A stretch of 64,000 nt of DNA from Roseiflexus sp. RS-1. GTDB lineage: Bacteria > Chloroflexota > Chloroflexia > Chloroflexales > Roseiflexaceae. The stretch lies in the NCBI RefSeq assembly GCF_000016665.1, contig NC_009523.1:2418001-2482000 (forward strand), written 5' to 3'. The notes under the pieces were generated by a model. The model did not search any database. It had not been told where the DNA came from and worked only from the letters and a program-made list of their open reading frames with translations. Made by a program: the position numbers and the translations under genes. Positions 9,547 to 62,320 of the stretch are shown here, piece after piece (the stretch's first letter is position 1; the number at the start of each line of letters is the position of its first letter).

Positions 9547-12500
9547 GTTTCAGTGCTCTTCAGCGAGCCGAAAATTCCTCAATGTCGCCCGCTGGAGCAT
9601 CGAGGTTGATGCGCGGAACATGTTTCAGTGCTCTTCAGCGAGCCGAAAATTCCTCAATAGCGGGATCGGCGTGCTCATCAATCTCGCCCGCGAGCGGTTT
9701 CAGTGCTCTTCAGCGAGCCGAAAATTCCTCAATAAGTATAGTACTGGCGGTTGGTTGGTGAAAGACGGAGTTTCAGTGCTCTTCAGCGAGCCGAAAATTC
9801 CTCAATCCAGACGTAATCGAGCGCGCTTAGTCCGGCGTGACGTTTCAGTGCTCTTCAGCGAGCCGAAAATTCCTCAATGCGTCGGTAACGGCGACTGGAT
9901 CGCCAGCGCGTCGGGTTTCAGTGCTCTTCAGCGAGCCGAAAATTCCTCAATCTACGGCGCGCCAGGATGTATCACAAGTCGATACATCGGTTTCAGTGCT
10001 CTTCAGCGAGCCGAAAATTCCTCAATAAATACGAGAAGTTCGCGGGTCGAGACCGGGGCGCACCGTTTCAGTGCTCTTCAGCGAGCCGAAAATTCCTCAA
10101 TAGGAACACATCTTCCGGAGCAGTATCAACACCAGTTGTTTCAGTGCTCTTCAGCGAGCCGAAAATTCCTCAATCGACACGCGGAACGAACCGCGCCGGT
10201 GTACGAGTTTCTGTTTCAGTGCTCTTCAGCGAGCCGAAAATTCCTCAATCTCTTTCGGAGACCGGCGGCGATTGCGAAAGGGCGAGTTTCAGTGCTCTTC
10301 AGCGAGCCGAAAATTCCTCAATGGGTCACCTCACGCGCTTCGGTGTGGATGGGTTTGTGTTTCAGTGCTCTTCAGCGAGCCGAAAATTCCTCAATCGTGT
10401 TGTGACAGCCCGCGCCCATCGCCTCGCCCGAAGTTTCAGTGCTCTTCAGCGAGCCGAAAATTCCTCAATGGGGCGCTCTCCGCCCCCTCCATTCTTATTA
10501 TACCAGTTTCAGTGCTCTTCAGCGAGCCGAAAATTCCTCAATGCAAGTTCGGCGCGACCGGACGATCCCGCATCTGGGTTTCAGTGCTCTTCAGCGAGCC
10601 GAAAATTCCTCAATGCGCGCGAAGGGCTTTCATACTTGGGTTCTCGGCGAGGTTTCAGTGCTCTTCAGCGAGCCGAAAATTCCTCAATGACGTTTTCGAT
10701 ACGCTTGACGCCGGAATCGCGCATCGTTTCAGTGCTCTTCAGCGAGCCGAAAATTCCTCAATTTGATGCGTTACTTCAGACGATAGACCGCGCGGCGGTT
10801 TCAGTGCTCTTCAGCGAGCCGAAAATTCCTCAATCGCGTCGCGCGAACAACACCGAAATCCGGTTAGAAGTTTCAGTGCTCTTCAGCGAGCCGAAAATTC
10901 CTCAATAACAACCCGCCGCGCTGCCAGACTTCCACCAGCGCGAGTTTCAGTGCTCTTCAGCGAGCCGAAAATTCCTCAATGCGGACGGGTGCGATGTGGA
11001 CGATCTCAATCCAACCGTTGTTTCAGTGCTCTTCAGCGAGCCGAAAATTCCTCAATATTACACAGAAGCCGTCGCACTCGTCGAAGTCTGGGTTTCAGTG
11101 CTCTTCAGCGAGCCGAAAATTCCTCAATACGCACCATCAGCGCCACCCGCCGCTCGTCCATCCCGTTTCAGTGCTCTTCAGCGAGCCGAAAATTCCTCAA
11201 TGGTTCCGTCGGCGCGCGTGTTGCGTCAGTTGTGCAAGTTTCAGTGCTCTTCAGCGAGCCGAAAATTCCTCAATGCCGCGCGGTCGATCCGCGTCGTCGG
11301 AAGTTACAACGTTTCAGTGCTCTTCAGCGAGCCGAAAATTCCTCAATAAGATGCTGTGTTGTGACACTGCTGAAAGACAACGAGTTTCAGTGCTCTTCAG
11401 CGAGCCGAAAATTCCTCAATTTGAGTCCTCGTTGTACAGCACTGTCAATGTGATCTCAGTTTCAGTGCTCTTCAGCGAGCCGAAAATTCCTCAATCATCA
11501 ACGCGGCGGTGACGCTGTGGTTGTCGCCCCGTTTCAGTGCTCTTCAGCGAGCCGAAAATTCCTCAATCCGATCTCGACTTCCGCAGCGCCTTCGTTGCGC
11601 CGGAGTTTCAGTGCTCTTCAGCGAGCCGAAAATTCCTCAATACTCCCGTCTGAGCGTGAGGCGAAGCAAAGACGGCGTTTCAGTGCTCTTCAGCGAGCCG
11701 AAAATTCCTCAATAACTCTTGCACCTCTGGGAACCGTCGGTGAGGAGCGGTTTCAGTGCTCTTCAGCGAGCCGAAAATTCCTCAATTCGACCGACCGACG
11801 CCGAACGCTCGCGGTTTGAACAGGTTTCAGTGCTCTTCAGCGAGCCGAAAATTCCTCAATTCGGCGTAACGGTCAACGTCGACGCGCTGCTGGCGGATTG
11901 TTTCAGTGCTCTTCAGCGAGCCGAAAATTCCTCAATCGTGAATACGAGGGCGAGTTGATAGGCGTCTGGAAACGTTTCAGTGCTCTTCAGCGAGCCGAAA
12001 ATTCCTCAATGTTCCAAGACCCGAAAATCATTGATATCGAGGTCTGGGTTTCAGTGCTCTTCAGCGAGCCGAAAATTCCTCAATCATTCCGGAACACCGC
12101 CCCGCCGTCGTCGAGAAACTGTTTCAGTGCTCTTCAGCGAGCCGAAAATTCCTCAATCGCCCAGCGCGCCGCGCGCTGCCAGACATCCGCGTCGTGTTTC
12201 AGTGCTCTTCAGCGAGCCGAAAATTCCTCAATTGTCAAGCCCCAATTTTGCGGAAAATCCGGCGATTTTGTTTCAGTGCTCTTCAGCGAGCCGAAAATTC
12301 CTCAATTAACCCGGAGCGGCGGATCGTCGTTATACGCCCTATGTTTCAGTGCTCTTCAGCGAGCCGAAAATTCCTCAATGTCGCCACTGAAGATTAGGCA
12401 TATCAAAGTCCCGTGTTGTTTCAGTGCTCTTCAGCGAGCCGAAAATTCCTCAATGCAGTCGAGCGCTGTAATGCGCGTTCGATCCGATCCGTTTCAGTGC

Positions 12501-15500
12501 TCTTCAGCGAGCCGAAAATTCCTCAATCGTGAGTACGCAAGATTCAGGTTTACCGTTGTTGAAGTTTCAGTGCTCTTCAGCGAGCCGAAAATTCCTCAAT
12601 CAGGAGAGCGCATTTAGGATCGTAGCCAGCAATTGCGTTTCAGTGCTCTTCAGCGAGCCGAAAATTCCTCAATTGACGCGCATATGATCCTCTCCTGTTG
12701 ACGTGATAAAGTTTCAGTGCTCTTCAGCGAGCCGAAAATTCCTCAATGCCCTTGCCATTTGCGCGCCTAGCGGCTACCTGACGGTTTCAGTGCTCTTCAG
12801 CGAGCCGAAAATTCCTCAATCTAATATCCGCACAATCCTAAACGCAATTATTCAGGGTTTCAGTGCTCTTCAGCGAGCCGAAAATTCCTCAATGCGCGCG
12901 GGTTTATACAAGCCCGCTTGGATAGGGAAGTTTCAGTGCTCTTCAGCGAGCCGAAAATTCCTCAATTTATCGCGCGCGTACACGCATTGCCTGACACACA
13001 ATGTCGTTTCAGTGCTCTTCAGCGAGCCGAAAATTCCTCAATCTGCGACAGCACAGGTATGAAGCAATGGTACAGGCGTTTCAGTGCTCTTCAGCGAGCC
13101 GAAAATTCCTCAATCTAATATTTTCAGTTTATCCATAATCAACCTCAATCAGTTTCAGTGCTCTTCAGCGAGCCGAAAATTCCTCAATTCTGGTAGCGCG
13201 CATTTTCGCCGCGCGTATCGTCTGTTTCAGTGCTCTTCAGCGAGCCGAAAATTCCTCAATCGGTAGTGACGGGTTCAACTCCCCTGGTACTAATCAGGTT
13301 TCAGTGCTCTTCAGCGAGCCGAAAATTCCTCAATACCCGTACTGTCTCTGCCTTGCCCTTGCGGTTCATCTGTTTCAGTGCTCTTCAGCGAGCCGAAAAT
13401 TCCTCAATCGGTAGTGACGGGTTCAACTCCCCTGGTACTAATCAGGTTTCAGTGCTCTTCAGCGAGCCGAAAATTCCTCAATTCAAGATAAGCCTTATAC
13501 GCCGTATCAGCAAGTGTAGTTTCAGTGCTCTTCAGCGAGCCGAAAATTCCTCAATGTAGGCTATCGGCATTATGATGATAGGGTTTTGGTACAGGTTTCA
13601 GTGCTCTTCAGCGAGCCGAAAATTCCTCAATGTTCTGGTAGCGCGCATTTTCGCCGCGCGTATCGTCTGTTTCAGTGCTCTTCAGCGAGCCGAAAATTCC
13701 TCAATCGGGTTCAAAGGGCTAAGCAAAGACGGTGTTTTTGTGTTTCAGTGCTCTTCAGCGAGCCGAAAATTCCTCAATAGAGAGGTGATACGTTATATGT
13801 GGGAAGTCCAAAAGTTTCAGTGCTCTTCAGCGAGCCGAAAATTCCTCAATGAAACACCGTGAAACTCCGTAAAACATCATATCACGAATGTTTCAGTGCT
13901 CTTCAGCGAGCCGAAAATTCCTCAATCGAATCTATGTCTTGTTGTGCGCAAAAATGTTACATACGTTTCAGTGCTCTTCAGCGAGCCGAAAATTCCTCAA
14001 TATTGTGACCGTTGTAGGCTACGCTCGGACGGTGAGAGGTTTCAGTGCTCTTCAGCGAGCCGAAAATTCCTCAATTTGGCATATCGGGGCTACTGGTGTA
14101 CCGAAAGCAGACGTTTCAGTGCTCTTCAGCGAGCCGAAAATTCCTCAATGTTACCACGCGCTTGCGCTAGCCGTATGCGCGCCTAGGTTTCAGTGCTCTT
14201 CAGCGAGCCGAAAATTCCTCAATGCAACCCGGTACGAATCGAAATTGACGCGCATAGAGTTTCAGTGCTCTTCAGCGAGCCGAAAATTCCTCAATGGAAC
14301 CCCGCCGACGCCGGCGGGGTTTCCGGTCGTGTTTCAGTGCTCTTCAGCGAGCCGAAAATTCCTCAATCACCGACAACGCTGACGTTCCAGAACCAACCGG
14401 TTGAGGTTTCAGTGCTCTTCAGCGAGCCGAAAATTCCTCAATCGGAAGGGATGTCTCAAAGTGGGGATGGATCGAGTTCGACGTTTCAGTGCTCTTCAGC
14501 GAGCCGAAAATTCCTCAATCGTCTTCAGTTTCGCCGCGAACTCAACGGAGATTTCGTTTCAGTGCTCTTCAGCGAGCCGAAAATTCCTCAATTTTGCCGA
14601 TATCCGCGAATTACTGAAGAATATGGTGAAGTTTCAGTGCTCTTCAGCGAGCCGAAAATTCCTCAATTCCGTCTGGTTCGACGCGGCGCGCTGGGCTGTC
14701 GAGTGGTTTCAGTGCTCTTCAGCGAGCCGAAAATTCCTCAATTCGATAGTGGTCATAAACCGCTCTCAGGAACGTATCAGTTTCAGTGCTCTTCAGCGAG
14801 CCGAAAATTCCTCAATAGCGTCTACCAGACGCTGGACGATGCGCGGAAGGACGTTTCAGTGCTCTTCAGCGAGCCGAAAATTCCTCAATTTGGCAGAAGG
14901 GGGGTGATCATATGGCGCTTGTCGCGTTTCAGTGCTCTTCAGCGAGCCGAAAATTCCTCAATTTTTCCGAACATCAGCGCAATTATACGAATTGTGAGGT
15001 TTCAGTGCTCTTCAGCGAGCCGAAAATTCCTCAATTGTGTGACCGAGTGCGGCTACACGACGTTGCTTGACGTTTCAGTGCTCTTCAGCGAGCCGAAAAT
15101 TCCTCAATGGAGCGCGTGGCGGGTGTTTAGGTCGCTGAGTTAGCGGTTTCAGTGCTCTTCAGCGAGCCGAAAATTCCTCAATCATCATCGACATCCACCC
15201 AGCGCGTGCAATCGACCGCGTTTCAGTGCTCTTCAGCGAGCCGAAAATTCCTCAATGTAAGCGAGCGGCGGCGCGGTTGGTGGCGCGCCGGAGTTTCAGT
15301 GCTCTTCAGCGAGCCGAAAATTCCTCAATTTGATTGCGGCCAAAAGCCAAACGTCGAATCAAGTTCTTGAGTTTCAGTGCTCTTCAGCGAGCCGAAAATT
15401 CCTCAATACGACCCGACAAAATGACCGCATTTTACGAAGCAGAGTTTCAGTGCTCTTCAGCGAGCCGAAAATTCCTCAATGAGGAATTGCGCTTCGAGAT

Positions 15501-18500
15501 CGACCGCGCCCGCGCCGGTTTCAGTGCTCTTCAGCGAGCCGAAAATTCCTCAATTCTCGATGTCGAGGTAGCGCTGGTTGATGCGCATCGCGTCGTTTCA
15601 GTGCTCTTCAGCGAGCCGAAAATTCCTCAATTGGCAGACAAACGCCGGATTTTGGTTCGCCGACGCGCGTTTCAGTGCTCTTCAGCGAGCCGAAAATTCC
15701 TCAATGCGCCTGCAGCGTCTCCTTGCCGACGCCCCGCGCGGCGTTTCAGTGCTCTTCAGCGAGCCGAAAATTCCTCAATTTCTCGGCGTCGTTGAGGTAG
15801 CGCGCGCAGACGACTGTTTCAGTGCTCTTCAGCGAGCCGAAAATTCCTCAATGCGTGAGGAGCGGTCGCCGGGCAAACGCGGCGAAAAGTTTCAGTGCTC
15901 TTCAGCGAGCCGAAAATTCCTCAATGCTGACCGGGCGGGTGCATCCACACTTGAAGATCGCGTTTCAGTGCTCTTCAGCGAGCCGAAAATTCCTCAATCC
16001 ATCCGTTGTCGGACGGGGCTTGTCGGATTCGGTGTTTCAGTGCTCTTCAGCGAGCCGAAAATTCCTCAATCGCCTTCGGGTCGCGCACCCCCAGCGCCGG
16101 CGCGTCCGTTTCAGTGCTCTTCAGCGAGCCGAAAATTCCTCAATGCAGTCGCAGCGCCTTATAGAGCAGCGCCTCGGCGCGTTTCAGTGCTCTTCAGCGA
16201 GCCGAAAATTCCTCAATTCATAATGCGGTGGGGTTGGAGGTGCGTCCGATTGAGTTTCAGTGCTCTTCAGCGAGCCGAAAATTCCTCAATCGTCGCCGGT
16301 TCCGGCGCGCCGTTCGCGCGCGAAACGGTTTCAGTGCTCTTCAGCGAGCCGAAAATTCCTCAATTCGACGAAGCGGCGCAATTCTTCCGAGAATTCAGTG
16401 GTTTCAGTGCTCTTCAGCGAGCCGAAAATTCCTCAATCAAAGCGCGTTTGATTATTCTCGCCGACGCCGACGTGTTTCAGTGCTCTTCAGCGAGCCGAAA
16501 ATTCCTCAATCGACCGCTTTCGTCCAGTCCTCAAGTTCTTGATGCGTTTCAGTGCTCTTCAGCGAGCCGAAAATTCCTCAATCCGGTCGTTAGCCTAGCA
16601 CACAAGTTCCCGTCTGTCAAGTTTCAGTGCTCTTCAGCGAGCCGAAAATTCCTCAATGGTCGTAGTATCGGTCGCTGTTGCGAAGGACAACGACGTTTCA
16701 GTGCTCTTCAGCGAGCCGAAAATTCCTCAATTTTGGTCTCAACGTACACGTTGATCTCGCGCTCAAGGTTTCAGTGCTCTTCAGCGAGCCGAAAATTCCT
16801 CAATTTTCGATAGTAGCGTTCGCTTCCCAGCGACCGTCAATGTTTCAGTGCTCTTCAGCGAGCCGAAAATTCCTCAATTCTGCGCCCCAGTCGTCGAGCG
16901 CCGCAAGCAGCGCGTGTTTCAGTGCTCTTCAGCGAGCCGAAAATTCCTCAATGTTGGTGGCGCTGCTGCTCCGCGACCCAGCCGTTCGTTTCAGTGCTCT
17001 TCAGCGAGCCGAAAATTCCTCAATATCGCCCGTCACACCTTCCCCCGCCGCCGGGCGAACGCGTTTCAGTGCTCTTCAGCGAGCCGAAAATTCCTCAATG
17101 CGAGACCGCGCCCGCCAGCGACCGGTTCTTCTTCGTTTCAGTGCTCTTCAGCGAGCCGAAAATTCCTCAATTCAGCGATTGAACCACATCAAGCGCTTCG
17201 TCGCGGGTTTCAGTGCTCTTCAGCGAGCCGAAAATTCCTCAATTCAAAAAGAGCGCGAATCAGTTCTTCCGCCTCCGCGGTTTCAGTGCTCTTCAGCGAG
17301 CCGAAAATTCCTCAATCTAACATTCCCACTATTCGCGCCCCGGTACACCGCCGTTTCAGTGCTCTTCAGCGAGCCGAAAATTCCTCAATACAACTACCCG
17401 AATATCGTTGTCATCCGGTCGGCAAAGTTTCAGTGCTCTTCAGCGAGCCGAAAATTCCTCAATTGTTCATTTATTCGCCGTCGGTCGGGACGGGCGTCTC
17501 AAGTTTCAGTGCTCTTCAGCGAGCCGAAAATTCCTCAATCGCGAACTGGAGAACGACTTCCGCGTTTCGCGCGCGAAGTTTCAGTGCTCTTCAGCGAGCC
17601 GAAAATTCCTCAATTATATTGATTCGGTGTGCGAAGCCGCGCCCGCAACGAACGTTTCAGTGCTCTTCAGCGAGCCGAAAATTCCTCAATCGATGTGTTG
17701 TGACACTGGTACTGCTGATGGAACAACAGCGTTTCAGTGCTCTTCAGCGAGCCGAAAATTCCTCAATCCAGAACAGAAAACGGCGCGCGCGTTGACCGCG
17801 AGTGTTTCAGTGCTCTTCAGCGAGCCGAAAATTCCTCAATTACTATAGGCTAGCCCTAGCCGTTTGCGCGCCTAGGTTTCAGTGCTCTTCAGCGAGCCGA
17901 AAATTCCTCAATTTCTGACGTTGCTGCCGACGCTGATCGAGTTGGCGACGGTCGTTTCAGTGCTCTTCAGCGAGCCGAAAATTCCTCAATCAGGTTTTTG
18001 GTTTGCCGACGTTTTCGTTGAGCGCGAGTTTCAGTGCTCTTCAGCGAGCCGAAAATTCCTCAATTTCAGTCCGTCCCAAGGCTTGCCGATGCGCCGGGAC
18101 GGTTTCAGTGCTCTTCAGCGAGCCGAAAATTCCTCAATTCGACCGCGCGCTGGTTGCGGACGCGGCGCGGGGTGTTGGTTTCAGTGCTCTTCAGCGAGCC
18201 GAAAATTCCTCAATGTGTTCGTCATATCGCACAGCCCGACCAGCCCATTGAGTTTCAGTGCTCTTCAGCGAGCCGAAAATTCCTCAATTGATCATCCACA
18301 CCGGCAACGGTCTGATGCCGATGTGTTTCAGTGCTCTTCAGCGAGCCGAAAATTCCTCAATCGAGGTCGAGGTAGCGCTGGTTGATGCGCATCGCGTCGT
18401 TTCAGTGCTCTTCAGCGAGCCGAAAATTCCTCAATCGGCGAGCCGAACCTGCTGAACATCCCGCGCGGCGAGTTTCAGTGCTCTTCAGCGAGCCGAAAAT

Positions 18501-18730
18501 TCCTCAATTCGGAGGCGGCGAAATGCTACCCGCGCGTGCTGTCGGTGTTTCAGTGCTCTTCAGCGAGCCGAAAATTCCTCAATGGGCGCGTGGGACACCT
18601 CACGCGCTTCGGCGTTGACGTTTCAGTGCTCTTCAGCGAGCCGAAAATTCCTCAATCCAGACGCGGTACAACTCGAAAAAGCGGCGCTTCTCCGTTTCAG
18701 TGCTCTTCAGCGAGCCGAAAATTCCTCAAT
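9547..18730 (-). CRISPR. CRISPR array, 125 canonical repeats
   Basis: I counted 125 copies of one 37-bp repeat, written on the plus strand as GTTTCAGTGCTCTTCAGC...GAGCCGAAAATTCCTCAAT, starting at 9547, 9622, 9697 and so on to 18694. Spacers are 35-41 bp. By eye all copies are identical. On the minus strand the repeat ends in GCACTGAAAC, close to the ATTGAAAC 5' handle of mature crRNAs, so transcription should run on the minus strand. This agrees with the promoter at 18826-18854 and with the degenerate copies at the left end. Several spacers are duplicated or near-duplicated. No cas genes occur in the window, so the effector type is unknown; the handle suits a type I or type III system encoded elsewhere. 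All open frames across the array are chance readings of repeat and spacer. Confidence 0.99.
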
Positions 18731-19020: not shown

Positions 19021-20124
19021 TTACCCGACGATGACCCGCGCTGCCACTGCCGCGCCGACGTCGGTCGTGGTTGCGGGGCGCTCATCTGGCGCAGCAATGT
19101 CGGCGGTGACGATGCCATCCTCGATGGTGCGCCAGACGGCGGTTTCAACGGCGCGCGCTTCGCGCTCCAGCCCCAGCGAGTGTCGCAGAAGCAGCGCTAC
19201 ACTCAGGATGGTTGCCAGCGGGTTGGCGATCCCTTTGCCGGCGATGTCGGGCGCTGAGCCGTGGATGGGTTCGTACAACCCCATCCGCGTCGTCCTGCCG
19301 GTGTCGCCGGGTGCGCCGAGCGATGCGGATGGAAGCATCCCCATCGATCCTGCCAGCATCGATGCTTCATCGGTCAGAATGTCACCGAACATGTTTTCGG
19401 TCACGATCACGTCGAAGTCTGAGGGACGGCGGATGAGGTGCATGGCGCATGCGTCGACCAGCATGTGTTCCAGATGCACGTCGGGGAACTCGTCGCGCAT
19501 CACGCGTGTTGTGACGCTGCGCCACAGGCGTGAGGTTTCCAGCACGTTCGCTTTGTCCACCGAGGTCACTTTTTTGCGCCGCTGACGCGCCAGGGTTGCG
19601 GCTGTCCGCACGATCCGCTCGATCTCAGCCGTGGTGTAGACGCATTCGTCATAGGCGCTCTCGCCGCCATCAGGGGTCGTATCGCGCCCTTTTTCGCCAA
19701 AATAGATGCCGCCGGTCAGTTCACGTACAACGATCAGATCAACTCCCTGCAATCGTTCGGGGCGCAGCGGCGACGCGGCGATCAGGCGCGGGTGCAATGT
19801 GACCGGGCGCAGGTTGGCGAACAGTCCCAGCGCCTTGCGGATGCCGAGCAGTCCCTGTTCGGGACGCACCGGCGCGTCCGGGTTATCCCATTTTGGACCG
19901 CCGACTGCGCCGAGAAGCACCGCATCCGACTCGCGGCACAGGCGCAGGGTTTCGTCTGGCAGCGCCGTTCCAACGGCGTCGATGGCGCATCCGCCGATCA
20001 GCGCTTCGCGCATGTCGAAGGTATGTCCGAAACGCTCTCCAACCGCTTCGAGAACACGCCTCCCCTCAGCAACCACTTCCGGTCCGATGCCGTCTCCGGG
20101 AAGCGCAGTGATAACCGCATGCAT
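19021..20124 (-). CDS. leuB: 3-isopropylmalate dehydrogenase
   Basis: Oxidatively decarboxylates 3-isopropylmalate to 2-oxoisocaproate with NAD+, the third committed step of leucine synthesis. The 367-residue length is usual. [17 protein letters not shown] opens the protein. [12 protein letters not shown], the catalytic Tyr/Lys regions, and [22 protein letters not shown] (metal-binding Asp residues) are intact. It is the last gene of the ilv-leu operon, 12 bases after the YqhA-like gene, and the CRISPR leader follows its stop. Confidence 0.97.
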
Positions 20125-20631: not shown

Positions 20632-21246
20632 TCAGCTCCTTGCTGTCGTGACGACGCGCGCCGGACGCGAGGCTTCATACGCGCTGATGGCGGCTTCTTC
20701 ATTGAGCAGAAATCCCATCTGATCGACGCCGTGCAGCAGGCAGTGTTTGGTGAACGGATCGATCGGGAAGTGGACGCCGCGACCGTCGGGAAGGGTGACC
20801 GTCTGCGCTGCCAGGTCAATGGTGACCGTGGTGGTCGGGTCTTCATCGAAGAGGCTGACCAGTTGCTGATAGGTTTCATCGTCTACCTGGACGGTCAGCA
20901 AGCCGTTCTTTAGTGCATTGTTGCGGAAAATGTCGGCGAAGTAGGGACTGATGACTGCCTTGAACCCGTACCCCAGCAGCGCCCAGGGAGCATGTTCGCG
21001 TGATGAACCGCACCCGAAGTTGCGCCCGGCAACCAGGATGGTAGCGCCCTGCGTTTCTGGACGGTTCAGCACGAAATCAGGGTTGGGCTTGCCATCGGCG
21101 TCGAAGCGCCAGGCGTAGAACAATCCCTCCGCCAGTCCCGATTTGTCGGTGACTTTGAGATAGCGGGCGGGAATGATCTGATCGGTATCGATATCCTGGA
21201 CCGGAAGGGCGACAATGCGCCCGGTGATGACCGAAATGGGTTGCAT
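20632..21246 (-). CDS. leuD: 3-isopropylmalate dehydratase small subunit
   Basis: Small (swivelling) subunit of isopropylmalate isomerase, which with LeuC interconverts 2- and 3-isopropylmalate. 204 residues, normal for the family. The signature GRNFGCGSSREHAPWALLGYGFKAVI is complete, and DTDQIIPARYLK near the start is typical. It is separated from leuC by about 1.1 kb of tandem repeats, unusual for subunits that need balanced expression. Confidence 0.97.
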   Translation of the reverse strand: MQPISVITGRIVALPVQDIDTDQIIPARYLKVTDKSGLAEGLFYAWRFDADGKPNPDFVLNRPETQGATILVAGRNFGCGSSREHAPWALLGYGFKAVISPYFADIFRNNALKNGLLTVQVDDETYQQLVSLFDEDPTTTVTIDLAAQTVTLPDGRGVHFPIDPFTKHCLLHGVDQMGFLLNEEAAISAYEASRPARVVTTARS

Positions 21247-21330
21247 GTGATTGCTCCTATATTCTCATTCGCATAGTGAGCGGCATAGCGGACCTCCATC
21301 TGCCGTTGCCGGCTCAACCCTCCACTCGTA

Positions 21331-22345
21331 ACTGCTCAGGCATGCGGTTGAAACCGCGCCTGAGAGGACGCCTGGCGCCGGGTGACCGCCTGGGCGGTCG
21401 CCGTGGCGGCGTCCACGCAGGCGGACGCCCGGCGAAAAGCCTTCCAGAGGCGATTTCAATCGCTGAACGCCCGGCTGAGGAGTTACCTCCGGCCGTTGCT
21501 GCTCAGGCGTGCGGTTGAAACCGCGCCTGAGAGGACGCTTCGCGCCGGGCGACCGCCTGGGCGGTCGCCGTGGCGGCGTCCACGCAGGCGGACGCCCGGC
21601 GAAAAGCCTTCCAGAGGCGATTTCAATCGCTGAACGCCCGGCAGCCTGAGGAGTTACCTCCGGCCGTTGCTGCTCAGGCGTGCGGTTGAAACCGCGCCTG
21701 AGAGGACGCTTCGCGCCGGGCGACCGCCTATGCGGTCGCCGTGGCGGCGTCCACGCAGGCGGACGCCCGGCGAAAAGCCTTCCCAGAGGCGATTTCAATC
21801 GCTGAACGCCCGGCAGCCTGAGGAGTTACCTCCTGCCGTTGCTGCTCAGGCATGCGGTTGAAACCGCGCCTGAGAGGACGCCTGGCGCCGGGCGACCGCC
21901 TAAGCGGTCGCCGTGGCGGCGTCCACGCAGGCGGACGCCCGGCGAAAAGCCTTCCAGAGGCGATTGCACGCGCTGAACGCCAAGCAGCCTGAGGAGTTAC
22001 CTCCTGCCGTTGCTGCTCAGGCGTGCGGTTGAAACCGCGCCTGAGAGGACGCTTCGCGCCGGGCGACCGCCTATGCGGTCGCCGTGGCGGCGTCCACGCA
22101 GGCGGACGCCCGGCGAAAAGCCTTCCCAGAGGCGATTTCAATCGCTGAACGCCCGGCAGCCTGAGGAGTTACCTCCTGCCGTTGCTGCTCAGGCATGCGG
22201 TTGAAACCGCGCCTGAGAGGACGTTTCGCGCCGGGCGACCGCCTATGCGGTCGCCGTGGCGGCGTCCACGCAGGCGGACGCCCGGCGACAAGCCTTCCAG
22301 AGGCGATTTCAATCGCTGAACGCCAGGCAGCCTGAGAGTTACCTC
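21331..22345. repeat. Six ~171-bp tandem repeats between leuC and leuD
   Basis: Six direct copies begin at 21332, 21499, 21670, 21842, 22013 and 22185 (spacing 167-172 bp). Each unit contains several small inverted repeats, for example GGTTGAAACC, GGCGACCGCC...GGCGGTCGCC, GGCGTCC...GGACGCC and CGATTTCAATCG, so the transcript would be heavily folded. Units differ by few substitutions. Long frames in both strands here (with GRLFAGRPPAWTPPRR-like text) are periodic translations of the repeat and not genes. Confidence 0.95.
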
Positions 22346-22365
22346 CACTCTCTCTGAGATTCTCC

Positions 22366-23790
22366 TCATCCACCCAGATACCTGCGCGGGTCGGCGACCG
22401 CGCCTTCGATAGCAGAAGCGACGGCAGTGAGCGGACTGGCGAGGAAGGTGCGCGCTCCCGGTCCCTGGCGCCCTTCGAAGTTGCGATTGCTCGTTGAGAC
22501 GGCGTACCTGCCGGGGGGCACTTTGTCATCGTTCATGCCCAGGCACGCCGAGCATCCGGCTTCGCGCCATTCGGCGCCGGCTGCGCGGAAAATCTCGTGC
22601 AGACCTTCGGCTTCCGCCTGCTTTTTGACCTGCTGCGATCCGGGAACGACCATCATCCGCACGCCATCGGCGATCTTGCGTCCTTTCAGAAGCCGCGCCG
22701 CCATTCGCAGATCTGAAATCCGCGAGTTAGTGCAACTCCCCAGGAACACAACATCGATCTTGTGTCCGAGGAGGGGTTGTCCGGGGCGCAGGTCCATGTA
22801 ACGCAGCGCTTTGTCGAGCGCCTGGCGCGCCGCCGGATCAGGCAACTCTTCCGGCGTCGGAATGCGCCCGTCGATCGGCATGCCCATACCAGGGTTTGTG
22901 CCGTAAGTGATCATCGGTGTCAGTTGCGATGCGTCGAGCGTGATGATCCGGTCATAGACTGCACCCTCGTCGGTGGGGAGGGTGCGCCAGTACGCTACAG
23001 CTTCGTCCCAGGCTTTCCCTTTTGGCGCAAACGGTCGTCCAGCAATATATTCGAATGTAGTGTCATCGGGGGCGATCATACCAGCGCGCGCACCGCCTTC
23101 AATCGACATGTTGCAGATCGTCATGCGTTCTTCCATTGACAGCGCCCGGATGGTTTCGCCGGTGTACTCGAAGACGTGTCCGGTACCGGCGCCGACGCCG
23201 TAGCGCGCGATGATCGCCAGGATGATGTCTTTGGCCGTCACGCCCGGCGCCAGTCGCCCATCAACGCGCACTTCCATGGTTTTGGGGCGGGTCTGGATCA
23301 GGCACTGCGTCGCCAGCACATGGGCGACCTCGGACGTGCCGATGCCAAACGCCAGTGCGCCGAATGCGCCATGCGTACTGGTGTGGCTGTCGCCGCAGAC
23401 AATGGTCATGCCCGGCTGCGTCAGCCCCTGTTCAGGACCGATGACGTGAACGATGCCCTGGTATTCGCTTCCCAGTGCAAAGAGCGGGATGCCGAACTCA
23501 GCGCAATTTTGCTCGAGTTGGCGGAGTTGCGCTGCCGCCTGCGCATCGACGACCGGGATGATCCCGTCGGCGCCGCGTGGCGTGGTTGGCGTCGAATGAT
23601 CCATCGTCGCCAGGGTACGATCCGGTCGGCGCACCTTCAGACCGCGCTGCCGCAGTTCGGTGAACGCCTGCGGCGATGTGACTTCGTGAATGAGATGCAG
23701 ATCGATGTAGATCACTGCAGGGGTTTCCGCCGTCTGCGGTCGAACGATATGGGCATCCCAGACTTTATCAAACAGCGTGCGAGGTGTCAT
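22366..23790 (-). CDS. leuC: 3-isopropylmalate dehydratase large subunit
   Basis: Large subunit of isopropylmalate isomerase, a [4Fe-4S] aconitase-family enzyme. The cluster cysteines are in [14 protein letters not shown] and [22 protein letters not shown] and [19 protein letters not shown] are further signatures. An upstream in-frame ATG would give 501 residues, but the ATG at 23790 ([13 protein letters not shown]) matches the family start and is preceded by ACAGGAACC, giving 474 residues. It lies 56 bases after ilvE in the operon. Confidence 0.96.
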
Positions 23791-33115: not shown

Positions 33116-33245
33116 TGGGGTTGAAGGTTGGGGCGTTGAAGGTTGAAGGTTGGGGCGTTGAAGGTTGAAGGTTGGGGCGTTGGAGGTTGAAGGTTGAAGG
33201 TTGGGGCGTTGAAGGTTGAAGGTTGAGGGTTGGAGCGTTGAGCAT
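33116..33245. repeat. Heptanucleotide repeat (GAAGGTT type)
   Basis: About 130 bases of GTTGAAG/GTTGGGG units, mainly 7-bp period, directly upstream of the ilv promoter. The complementary form AACCTTC recurs at 62.19-62.31 kb. Confidence 0.8.
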
Positions 33246-61984: not shown

Positions 61985-62320
61985 TACAAGAACCAGGAAC
62001 CAGGAACTGAAAACCAGGAACTGAGAACTGAGAACTGATAGCCGATAGCCGATAGCCGAGAACTGATAGCCGATAGCCGATAGCCGAGAACTGATAGCCG
62101 ATAGCCGAGAACTGATAGCCGATAGCTGATAGCCGAGAACTGATAGCCGATAGCTGATAGCCGATAGCCGATAGCCGAGAACTGAGAACCGTTCAACCTT
62201 CAACCTTCAACTCCCGACCTTCAACCTTCAACCCCCGACCTTCAACCTTCAACCCCCGACCTTCAACCTTCAACCCCCGACCTTCAACCCCCAATCTTCA
62301 ACCTCCAACCTCCAACCTAC
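61985..62320. repeat. Large heptanucleotide repeat block
   Basis: Three 7-bp families in series: GAACCAG/GAGAACT (about 61988-62035), GATAGCC interspersed with GAGAACT (about 62036-62188), and AACCTTC/AACCCCC-GACCTTC (about 62189-62315). The strict 7-bp step is kept across family changes. Open frames here are artefacts. Confidence 0.9.

What the first reader, a model, noticed from the sequence alone, without database searches (positions are those of the whole stretch)
21331..22345. Six hairpin-rich 171-bp repeats inside an operon, between leuC and leuD
LeuC and LeuD form one enzyme and are usually adjacent. Here 1.1 kb of near-identical, heavily structured repeats separates them on the same transcript. 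The array could act as an RNA barrier, a processing site, or a dosage-tuning element whose copy number varies between strains.
Basis: partly seen in the sequence, partly recalled or inferred. Interest (0 to 1): 0.55.

Follow-up and report, generated by a model that had tools for sequence, protein, structure and literature searches.

The report
Amplified nested mini-transposon between leuC and leuD
The six repeats that split the leucine genes leuC and leuD are copies of a small gene-less transposon, apparently built from the ends of two unrelated jumping-DNA families, that landed there once and was then duplicated in place; no evidence was found that the bacterium uses it.

Summary
In detail: six ~171-bp hairpin units (94-100% alike) lie between leuC and leuD, inside a same-strand leu gene run. 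They are mobile-element copies. The array (21328-22342) is flanked by a perfect 8-bp target duplication (CTCCACTC) and ends in GTAACTGCTCAGGC-type inverted repeats; the closest relative has a 97-bp empty site. The family has 49 members at 13 loci of this genome. Five complete IS66-like elements of the class share the GTAA-N4-TCAG ends and 8-bp duplications, so the shell looks like an IS66-type MITE. The core is different: small palindromes in the order A-B-C|D-E-F that match, in order and strand, the repeat arrays upstream (A-B-C) and downstream (D-E-F) of an IS200/IS605-type tnpA elsewhere in the genome. The core thus looks like an IS200-type 'both ends, no gene' cassette. In a sister species the same core sits inside other inverted repeats with 9-bp duplications. 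In-place growth is supported by spacers that copy host flank (four other loci clearly, the window weakly). A function in leu expression is unsupported and untested.

The parts
21320..21327 (.). 8-bp target-site duplication, left copy (CTCCACTC)
   Evidence: identical to 22343-22350; 11 of 200000 random 1015-bp intervals of the window have identical 8-base flanks
21328..21341 (+). outer terminal inverted repeat GTAACTGCTCAGGC (IS66-like)
21328..22342 (.). whole array, six head-to-tail copies of the MITE
21344..21463 (-). hairpin cassette, unit 1
   Evidence: covariance model R1
21511..21630 (-). hairpin cassette, unit 2
   Evidence: covariance model R1
21682..21802 (-). hairpin cassette, unit 3 (unit identical to unit 5)
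21854..21973 (-). hairpin cassette, unit 4
   Evidence: alignment A1
22025..22145 (-). hairpin cassette, unit 5
22197..22316 (-). hairpin cassette, unit 6
   Evidence: alignment A1
22329..22342 (-). outer terminal inverted repeat, one base shorter (GTAACTCTCAGGCT)
22343..22350 (.). 8-bp target-site duplication, right copy (CTCCACTC)
21293..21309 (-). host flank that the spacers between units appear to copy (GCAACGGCAGATGGAGG)
   Evidence: local alignment score 22, reached by 1 of 5000 single-base shuffles
22366..23787 (-). leuC
   Evidence: TIGR00170 723.6 bits
20632..21246 (-). leuD
   Evidence: TIGR00171 215.4 bits
20137..20625 (-). UPF0114 protein gene
   Evidence: PF03350 E 7.6e-27
19021..20124 (-). 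leuB
   Evidence: TIGR00169 484.8 bits

Best explanation
The array is a non-autonomous mobile element that inserted once between leuC and leuD and was then multiplied to six copies in place. Its outer shell (terminal inverted repeats GTAACTRCTCAGGC, 8-bp target duplication) is of the IS66 type, a cut-and-paste (DDE) transposon family. Its inner ~120 bp is the joined left-end and right-end hairpin block of an IS200/IS605-type element, one transposase gene (tnpA) of which sits at 3.139 Mb of this genome. Shown: target duplication, inverted ends and an empty site in the nearest relative; order and strand match of the core to the two flanks of tnpA; array spacers that copy local host DNA at four other loci. 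Inferred: that an IS66-type transposase moved the composite, that short direct repeats and palindrome-prone replication caused the tandem growth, and that the operon tolerates it as a long untranslated structured spacer with at most a modest effect on leuD.
For: (1) Empty site: the nearest relative (L054, LeuD 98% identical) has a 97-bp leuC-leuD gap; read by eye, its single target copy GAGCAGAG faces GAGTGGAG. The family models find nothing in that gap or in five others (best E 0.085). (2) Target duplications: 8 of 8 in the window, L023 and L024, 7 of 8 in L027 and in L025's outer pair (L025 lies in a minisatellite, so that one is weak); the other 8 of 13 loci gave no testable pair. Swapped flanks: mean 31%, maximum 5 of 8, n=20. 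(3) Ends: among 61 IS66-type loci scanned, five distinct complete elements (seven rows) have GTAA-N4-TCAG ends and 8 of 8 duplications; L136 is an internally deleted IS66 (zf-IS66 27.7 bits, cut-off 27.3; NF033517 E 5.6e-15, a fragment below that model's cut-off) with end GTAACTACTCAGGGG and duplication TTTCTCTT 8 of 8. (4) Core: with half-models built from cassettes only, 14 of 14 units downstream of tnpA score best as right end and 13 of 13 long units upstream best as left end, on the coding strand (the full model agrees). tnpA is NF033573 IS200/IS605, 70.9 bits, cut-off 55. L030 holds left-end units, the first and last bases of tnpA with the middle missing, then right-end units. (5) In-place growth: spacers copy adjacent host DNA at 92-100% in L022, L023, L028 and L033; units within a locus are more alike (0.970, 107 pairs) than between loci (0.945, 839 pairs), 0 of 2000 label shuffles.
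Against: No complete element with exactly these ends and a transposase was found; the genome's only strong IS66 copy (L120) has ends GTAACTGCCTAsC and no matching target duplication. The two core halves are near-palindromic to each other, so left/right assignment rests on score differences of 5.7-25.6 bits; of 21 short upstream units, 16 score best as left end, 3 as right end on the other strand and 2 tie. Of 30 tnpA loci searched, only the one in this genome has core-like flanks at E up to 0.01, and G005 and G055, rich in the cassette, gave no tnpA match at all. IS200-type insertion next to a fixed tetranucleotide was not tested. In-place growth is not clean everywhere: the L036 units are scattered in the tree, one L034 unit groups with L021 and one L022 unit with L033, one L033 spacer gave no match and the L025 spacers only 13-16-base matches, and no L034 or L036 spacer was tested. 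The window's spacer match is short (14 of 17 columns). The nearest relative is a draft bin. For these reasons I lowered my first odds of 0.85 to 0.8.
Confidence: 0.8

Rival explanations
1. A regulatory RNA array: the hairpins are kept because they process, stabilise or attenuate the leuC-leuD message and so set the LeuC:LeuD ratio.
For: Very strong folding on the coding strand; gene order suggests one transcript; repeats in operons can attenuate transcripts or attract RNases (PMC3049150, passages).
Against: Absent from the same gap in five same-genus relatives and one other. The same unit lies at 12 other loci, among them beside CheW/MCP, radical-SAM, ThiS-MoaE and TPR genes. No Rfam family above its gathering score on the array.
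Confidence: 0.08
2. A REP/RAYT system: the units are REP sequences mobilised by a REP-associated tyrosine transposase.
For: Hairpin units flank a Y1 transposase gene on both sides; REP clusters reiterated with flanking DNA are described (PMC3733652, passages).
Against: The protein scores 21.2 bits against a cut-off of 80 for the RAYT model but 70.9 against 55 for IS200/IS605. Testable copies in this genome carry inverted ends and 8-bp duplications, which single-strand transposition does not make (recalled).
Confidence: 0.15
3. Plain MITE: the palindromic interior is just the inside of an old deletion derivative, and the likeness to the tnpA flanks is shared GC-rich palindromy or later capture by tnpA.
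For: GC-rich palindromes are common in this genome (flanks); G005 and G055 have the core but no tnpA match.
Against: 27 of 27 long units at tnpA score best as the expected half on the expected strand; the same core sits in other inverted ends with 9-bp duplications in G005; four local stems keep 95.5-100% pairing over 28 copies from four genomes, with both-sided changes in each.
Confidence: 0.15
4. Assembly artefact.
For: Near-identical repeats are error-prone.
Against: Single-contig genome; 13 loci, the arrays differing in period and in host-derived spacers. The copy number six could still be miscounted.
Confidence: 0.02

Closest known systems
IS66-family MITEs (ends GTAA..., 8-bp target duplication; family traits recalled and seen)
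   Same: Ends GTAACTRCTCAGGC, 8-bp duplications, small size, no transposase gene, dispersed copies
   Different: Interior is not shown to come from IS66; it matches IS200/IS605-type flanks; multi-copy at 8 of 13 loci
PATEs, 'ends-only' derivatives of IS200/IS605 elements (PMC7290912, passages seen)
   Same: Left-end plus right-end hairpins without the gene, possibly served in trans by one tnpA
   Different: Here wrapped in inverted repeats with target duplications of another transposon family
REP/BIME/REPtron and TIRYT elements (PMC3733652, passages and section 16 seen)
   Same: Palindromes flanking a Y1 transposase, clusters reiterated with stretches of flanking DNA, composite palindromes
   Different: tnpA is below the RAYT model cut-off; GTAG/CGTC tags not examined
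BrickBuilt MITE of Porphyromonas gingivalis (PMC4596501, abstract and outline seen)
   Same: MITE combined with a tandem array, intergenic
   Different: BrickBuilt repeats are 23 nt inside one element; here the whole ~171-bp element repeats
Pneumococcal BOX and Neisseria Correia elements (PMC3049150, passages seen)
   Same: Structured repeats that may alter the fate of an operon's mRNA
   Different: No relation tested; no expression evidence here

Membership tests
IS66-type MITE | terminal inverted repeats starting GTAA | tested here: met
   GTAACTRCTCAGGC; five complete IS66-like elements with GTAA-N4-TCAG ends among 61 loci scanned, a scan that required a GTAA-like start
IS66-type MITE | 8-bp target-site duplication | tested here: met
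   8, 8, 8, 7 and 7 of 8 at the 5 testable loci of 13
IS66-type MITE | autonomous partner with the same ends | tested here: inconclusive
   none with exact ends in own genome; related ends in L120 and L136
IS66-type MITE | interior derived from the parent IS | not tested
   core was matched to IS200-type flanks instead
IS200/IS605-type ends-only element (PATE) | left-end and right-end hairpins of a tnpA element in the right order and strand | tested here: met
   14 of 14 downstream and 13 of 13 long upstream units; short upstream units 16 of 21
IS200/IS605-type ends-only element (PATE) | cognate tnpA of the IS200/IS605 family in the genome | tested here: met
   NF033573 70.9 bits, cut-off 55; but no tnpA match in G005 and G055, which also carry the core
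IS200/IS605-type ends-only element (PATE) | insertion 3' of a fixed tetra/pentanucleotide, no target duplication | not tested
   no empty site of the bare cassette was looked for
REP/RAYT | transposase of the RAYT group | tested here: not met
   NF047646 21.2 bits, cut-off 80
CRISPR array | short repeats with unique spacers | tested here: not met
   171-bp units without unique spacers; a CRISPR array lies at 9547-18730
Known structured RNA (Rfam 15) | match above gathering score | tested here: not met
   best on the array 46.3 bits against 196

The most novel reading that the evidence does not exclude
IS200-type end cassettes are portable cargo that unrelated cut-and-paste transposons have picked up independently (IS66-type ends with 8-bp duplications here, GGGTGCAGGCATGA ends with 9-bp duplications in sister species G005, perhaps a third type in G037), and the cassette itself, possibly through its single-strand transposase or its palindromes, drives local tandem amplification, so that copy number in places such as leuC-leuD drifts fast and changes operon output.
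Probability: 0.3. Interest if true: 0.65.

Novelty: new variant of a known kind. Interest (0 to 1): 0.42.

Why it matters
It shows one hairpin cassette carried inside the inverted ends of at least two different transposon types, a nesting that my paper searches did not turn up, and it offers transposon ends rather than regulatory RNA as the explanation of a class of puzzling palindromic arrays in Chloroflexales. It also gives a natural test bed for how palindromes seed tandem duplication: 8 of 13 loci are multi-copy, at least four of them with copied host DNA.

Tried and rejected
Rfam search gave only sub-threshold miRNA-type matches on the array. Promoter and terminator scan was empty. L121/L122, the two weak IS66-like hits of 559 aa, have ends TATCCTCTCCAAAA and are a different element. 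The idea that the flanking repeats at 3.139 Mb mark a RAYT was set back after the family scores. A first left/right half-model run gave no left-half hits, evidently through a faulty split, and was redone. A first target-duplication test of G005 and G037 copies used an inner start of the inverted repeat and found nothing for G005; moving the start outward by four bases, after looking at the flanks, gave 9-bp duplications in G005: 9, 9, 8, 7, 9 and 8 of 9 in six of eight loci, 5 of 9 in L037 where a wrong pair was taken, no pair in L215; swapped flanks reach at most 5 of 9, n=42. The shift was post hoc. For the G037/G055 type, 3 of 9 loci gave a pair; two suggest 11-12 bp (10 of 11, 9 of 12) and one does not; I do not claim it. 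A general search for inverted repeats on five of those loci and a 14-mer pairing scan of 22 showed nothing decisive. Copy number among strains could not be tested: the genomes searched (one per species) held no second genome of this species, and metagenome scans are capped at 0.

Rows dropped: of 20 stretches fetched, 12 entered alignment A1; L211, L212, L214, L215, L216, L222, L228 (masked) and L229 did not. Of the 49 family members, 44 with at least 100 model positions entered the identity test. Spacer tests covered at most the first three spacers per array, and of these only spacers of 12 bases or more.

Full report
WHAT IS THERE. Six ~171-bp units stand head to tail at 21328-22342, 93.6-100% identical in 15 pairs. 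They lie between leuC (22366-23787, minus) and leuD (20632-21246, minus), inside a same-strand run leuA, pheA, cimA, ilvE, leuC, leuD, UPF0114, leuB. Intergenic gaps are 57, 21, 109, 59, 1119, 6 and 12 bp. Each of the six units folds into long imperfect hairpins on at least one strand; unit 3 on the leu coding strand reaches -112.8 kcal/mol, z -8.4. Units 3 and 5 are identical, and Tandem Repeats Finder scores a 343-bp dimer period slightly higher than 171, so growth may have gone partly by doublets. The genome is a single contig of 5,801,598 bases; from recall that is the size of Roseiflexus sp. RS-1, and the nearest named loci are Roseiflexus bins.

IT IS A DISPERSED FAMILY. The unit matches 76 places in the genome at E up to 0.001, weak relatives included. 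In the 16 stretches fetched around those places plus the window, keeping the best strand, 49 members score above 50 bits, 44 of them over at least 100 model positions, at 13 loci: 14, 7, 6 (window), 4, 4, 4, 3, 2 and five single copies. Eight of 13 loci are multi-copy, with differing periods.

IT IS AN INSERTION. The array is flanked by identical 8-mers CTCCACTC at 21320-21327 and 22343-22350; 11 of 200000 random intervals of that length in the window have identical 8-base flanks. Its outer ends are GTAACTGCTCAGGC and a one-base-shorter copy. In the nearest relative, L054 (LeuD 98%, LeuC 98%), the gap is 97 bp; the program alignment placed the right flank well and the left flank poorly, and I read the empty site by eye. 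Four further same-genus loci and one of another genus have gaps of 120, 251, 312, 499 and 304 bp; read by eye they hold other repeats, and the family models find nothing better than E 0.085 in the six gaps. This gap tolerates insertions. Target duplications could be tested at 5 of 13 loci: 8 of 8 in the window, L023 and L024, 7 of 8 in L027 and L025; L025 lies in a minisatellite, where a match is easy.

THE SHELL IS IS66-TYPE. A scan of 61 IS66-type loci from this and related genomes for convergent GTAA-like ends with target duplications gave seven rows, five distinct complete elements, with GTAA-N4-TCAG ends and 8 of 8 duplications. The scan required a GTAA-like start but not the TCAG; two of the five came from the PF03050 search, three from likeness to L136. 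An internally deleted IS66 in the same bacterial family (L136, 910 bp) has end GTAACTACTCAGGGG and duplication TTTCTCTT 8 of 8; its open piece matches zf-IS66 just over the cut-off and NF033517 as a fragment. The window genome's own strong IS66 transposase (L120, 483 aa, PF03050 E 3e-39) has ends GTAACTGCCTAsC without a matching duplication, so the active partner is not identified. The 35 genomic matches to GTAACTSCTCAGGC with up to one mismatch fall in or within about 150 bp of family arrays.

THE CORE LOOKS IS200-TYPE. The central ~120 bp consists of small palindromes in the order A-B-C, D-E-F. Homologous cores with the same order occur in G005 (same genus) and in G037 and G055 (another family of the order), at roughly 70-85% identity. 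Across 28 aligned copies, stems A, C, D and F pair in 97.6, 99.5, 95.5 and 100% of cells, with changes on both sides at 2, 1, 3 and 2 pairs, against at most 64% paired when slid. These counts hold few independent events and cannot tell RNA from single-stranded DNA. A model of the core (R1) finds 18 of 158 genomes of the class, this one included, at E up to 1e-4, with at most 23 candidates scored per genome. A Y1 transposase gene at 3138608-3139036 (143 aa; NF033573 IS200/IS605 70.9 bits, cut-off 55) sits between two arrays of related repeats. Half-models built from cassettes only, without this locus, score 14 of 14 downstream units best as D-E-F and 13 of 13 long upstream units best as A-B-C, on the coding strand; of 21 short upstream units 16 agree, 3 go the other way and 2 tie (the full model agrees). 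That is the order of the cassette with the gene removed. A second locus, L030, shows the step: 3 long A-B-C units, the start of tnpA joined directly to its last bases, then 4 D-E-F units. L032 is an A-B-C-only array. Against this: of 30 tnpA loci from this and other genomes only this one has core-like flanks at E up to 0.01, and G005 and G055 gave no tnpA match although they are rich in the core.

DIFFERENT WRAPPERS. In G005 the same core is enclosed by GGGTGCAGGCATGA-type inverted repeats with 9-bp duplications: 9, 9, 8, 7, 9 and 8 of 9 in six loci, one wrong pair (5 of 9) and one locus without a pair, out of eight; swapped flanks reach at most 5 of 9. The start of the repeat was set after a first attempt failed. 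So core and shell seem to have different histories.

HOW ARRAYS GROW. Spacers between units copy the DNA beside the array: 136 bp in L022, 52 of 57 in L023, 51 of 53 in L028 and 343-344 of about 350 in L033, at 92-100% identity. One 33-bp spacer of L033 gave no match, L025 only 13-16-base matches in minisatellite, and no spacer of L034 or L036 was long enough among those tested. In the window the short spacer GCAACGGCAGGAGG aligns to host flank GCAACGGCAGATGGAGG, a score reached by 1 of 5000 single-base shuffles; a TGGAGGT present at both the left junction and the right flank offers a crossover point (reading). Units within a locus are more alike than between loci, 0.970 against 0.945, 0 of 2000 shuffles; the window units form one group in the tree, but the L036 units are scattered, one L034 unit groups with L021 and one L022 unit with L033. 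I conclude that in the window one copy inserted and was duplicated locally; the trigger is inferred. REP clusters reiterated with flanking DNA are described in PMC3733652 (passages).

FUNCTION. Nothing here shows a use. The array is not conserved at the site, and the same unit sits beside unrelated genes elsewhere. By analogy with repeats in other operons (PMC3049150, passages) it may attenuate, cleave or protect the message; that is untested. I put a kept regulatory role at about 8%.

NOVELTY. MITEs, ends-only IS200/IS605 elements (PMC7290912, passages), composite palindromes at Y1 transposase genes (PMC3733652, section 16) and a MITE holding a minisatellite (PMC4596501, abstract) are known. 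A review of prokaryotic MITEs does not use the words IS66, IS200, tandem or nested in its main text (PMC10969869, word search). An IS200-type cassette inside IS66-type ends, and inside other ends in a sister species, was not met in my searches, of which I saw listings and which cover one open-access library only.

Noticed in passing
window 9547-18730: Large CRISPR array (37-bp repeat GTTTCAGTGCTCTTCAGCGAGCCGAAAATTCCTCAAT; Rfam CRISPR-DR19 on the minus strand in the part searched) ending about 290 bp from leuB.
   Followed up: no
L031 4070-7414 (genome 3137.6-3140.9 kb): IS200/IS605-type tnpA flanked by amplified arrays of what look like its own ends: 14 right-end units downstream, 13 long and 21 short left-end-like units upstream. 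Such multiplied ends look unusual for this family.
   Followed up: partly
L030 4074-4743: Gene-deleted relative of that element: left-end units, start of tnpA fused to its end, then right-end units.
   Followed up: yes
L232-L237, L255, L256 flanks: Other IS200-type tnpA genes of Chloroflexales are bordered by small GC-rich palindromes (such as GCCCGC...GCGGGC, GGGCTGAAGCCC), by eye; the common dispersed palindromes of these genomes may be such ends. The core model itself did not match there.
   Followed up: no
L028 4333-4712: A two-copy array lies 14 bp before a radical-SAM/DUF512 gene, and its spacer duplicates 51 bp that include the predicted gene start.
   Followed up: no
L024 4631-4793: A single clean copy (duplication GATCGCAG) overlaps the 3' end of a GNAT acetyltransferase reading frame, so it may have replaced the protein's C-terminus.
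   Followed up: no
window 33119-33241, 62030-62318; L021, L025, L034: Heptamer minisatellites (GGTTGAA, GATAGCC and the like); several copies of the element sit in or beside such tracts.
   Followed up: no
L054-L059, leuC-leuD gap: The gap holds different sequence in each relative (97-499 bp), including minisatellite-like and palindromic tracts by eye: a tolerant site.
   Followed up: partly
L022 and L026: The two loci share flanking sequence beyond the cassette, so they may belong to a larger repeat (by eye).
   Followed up: no
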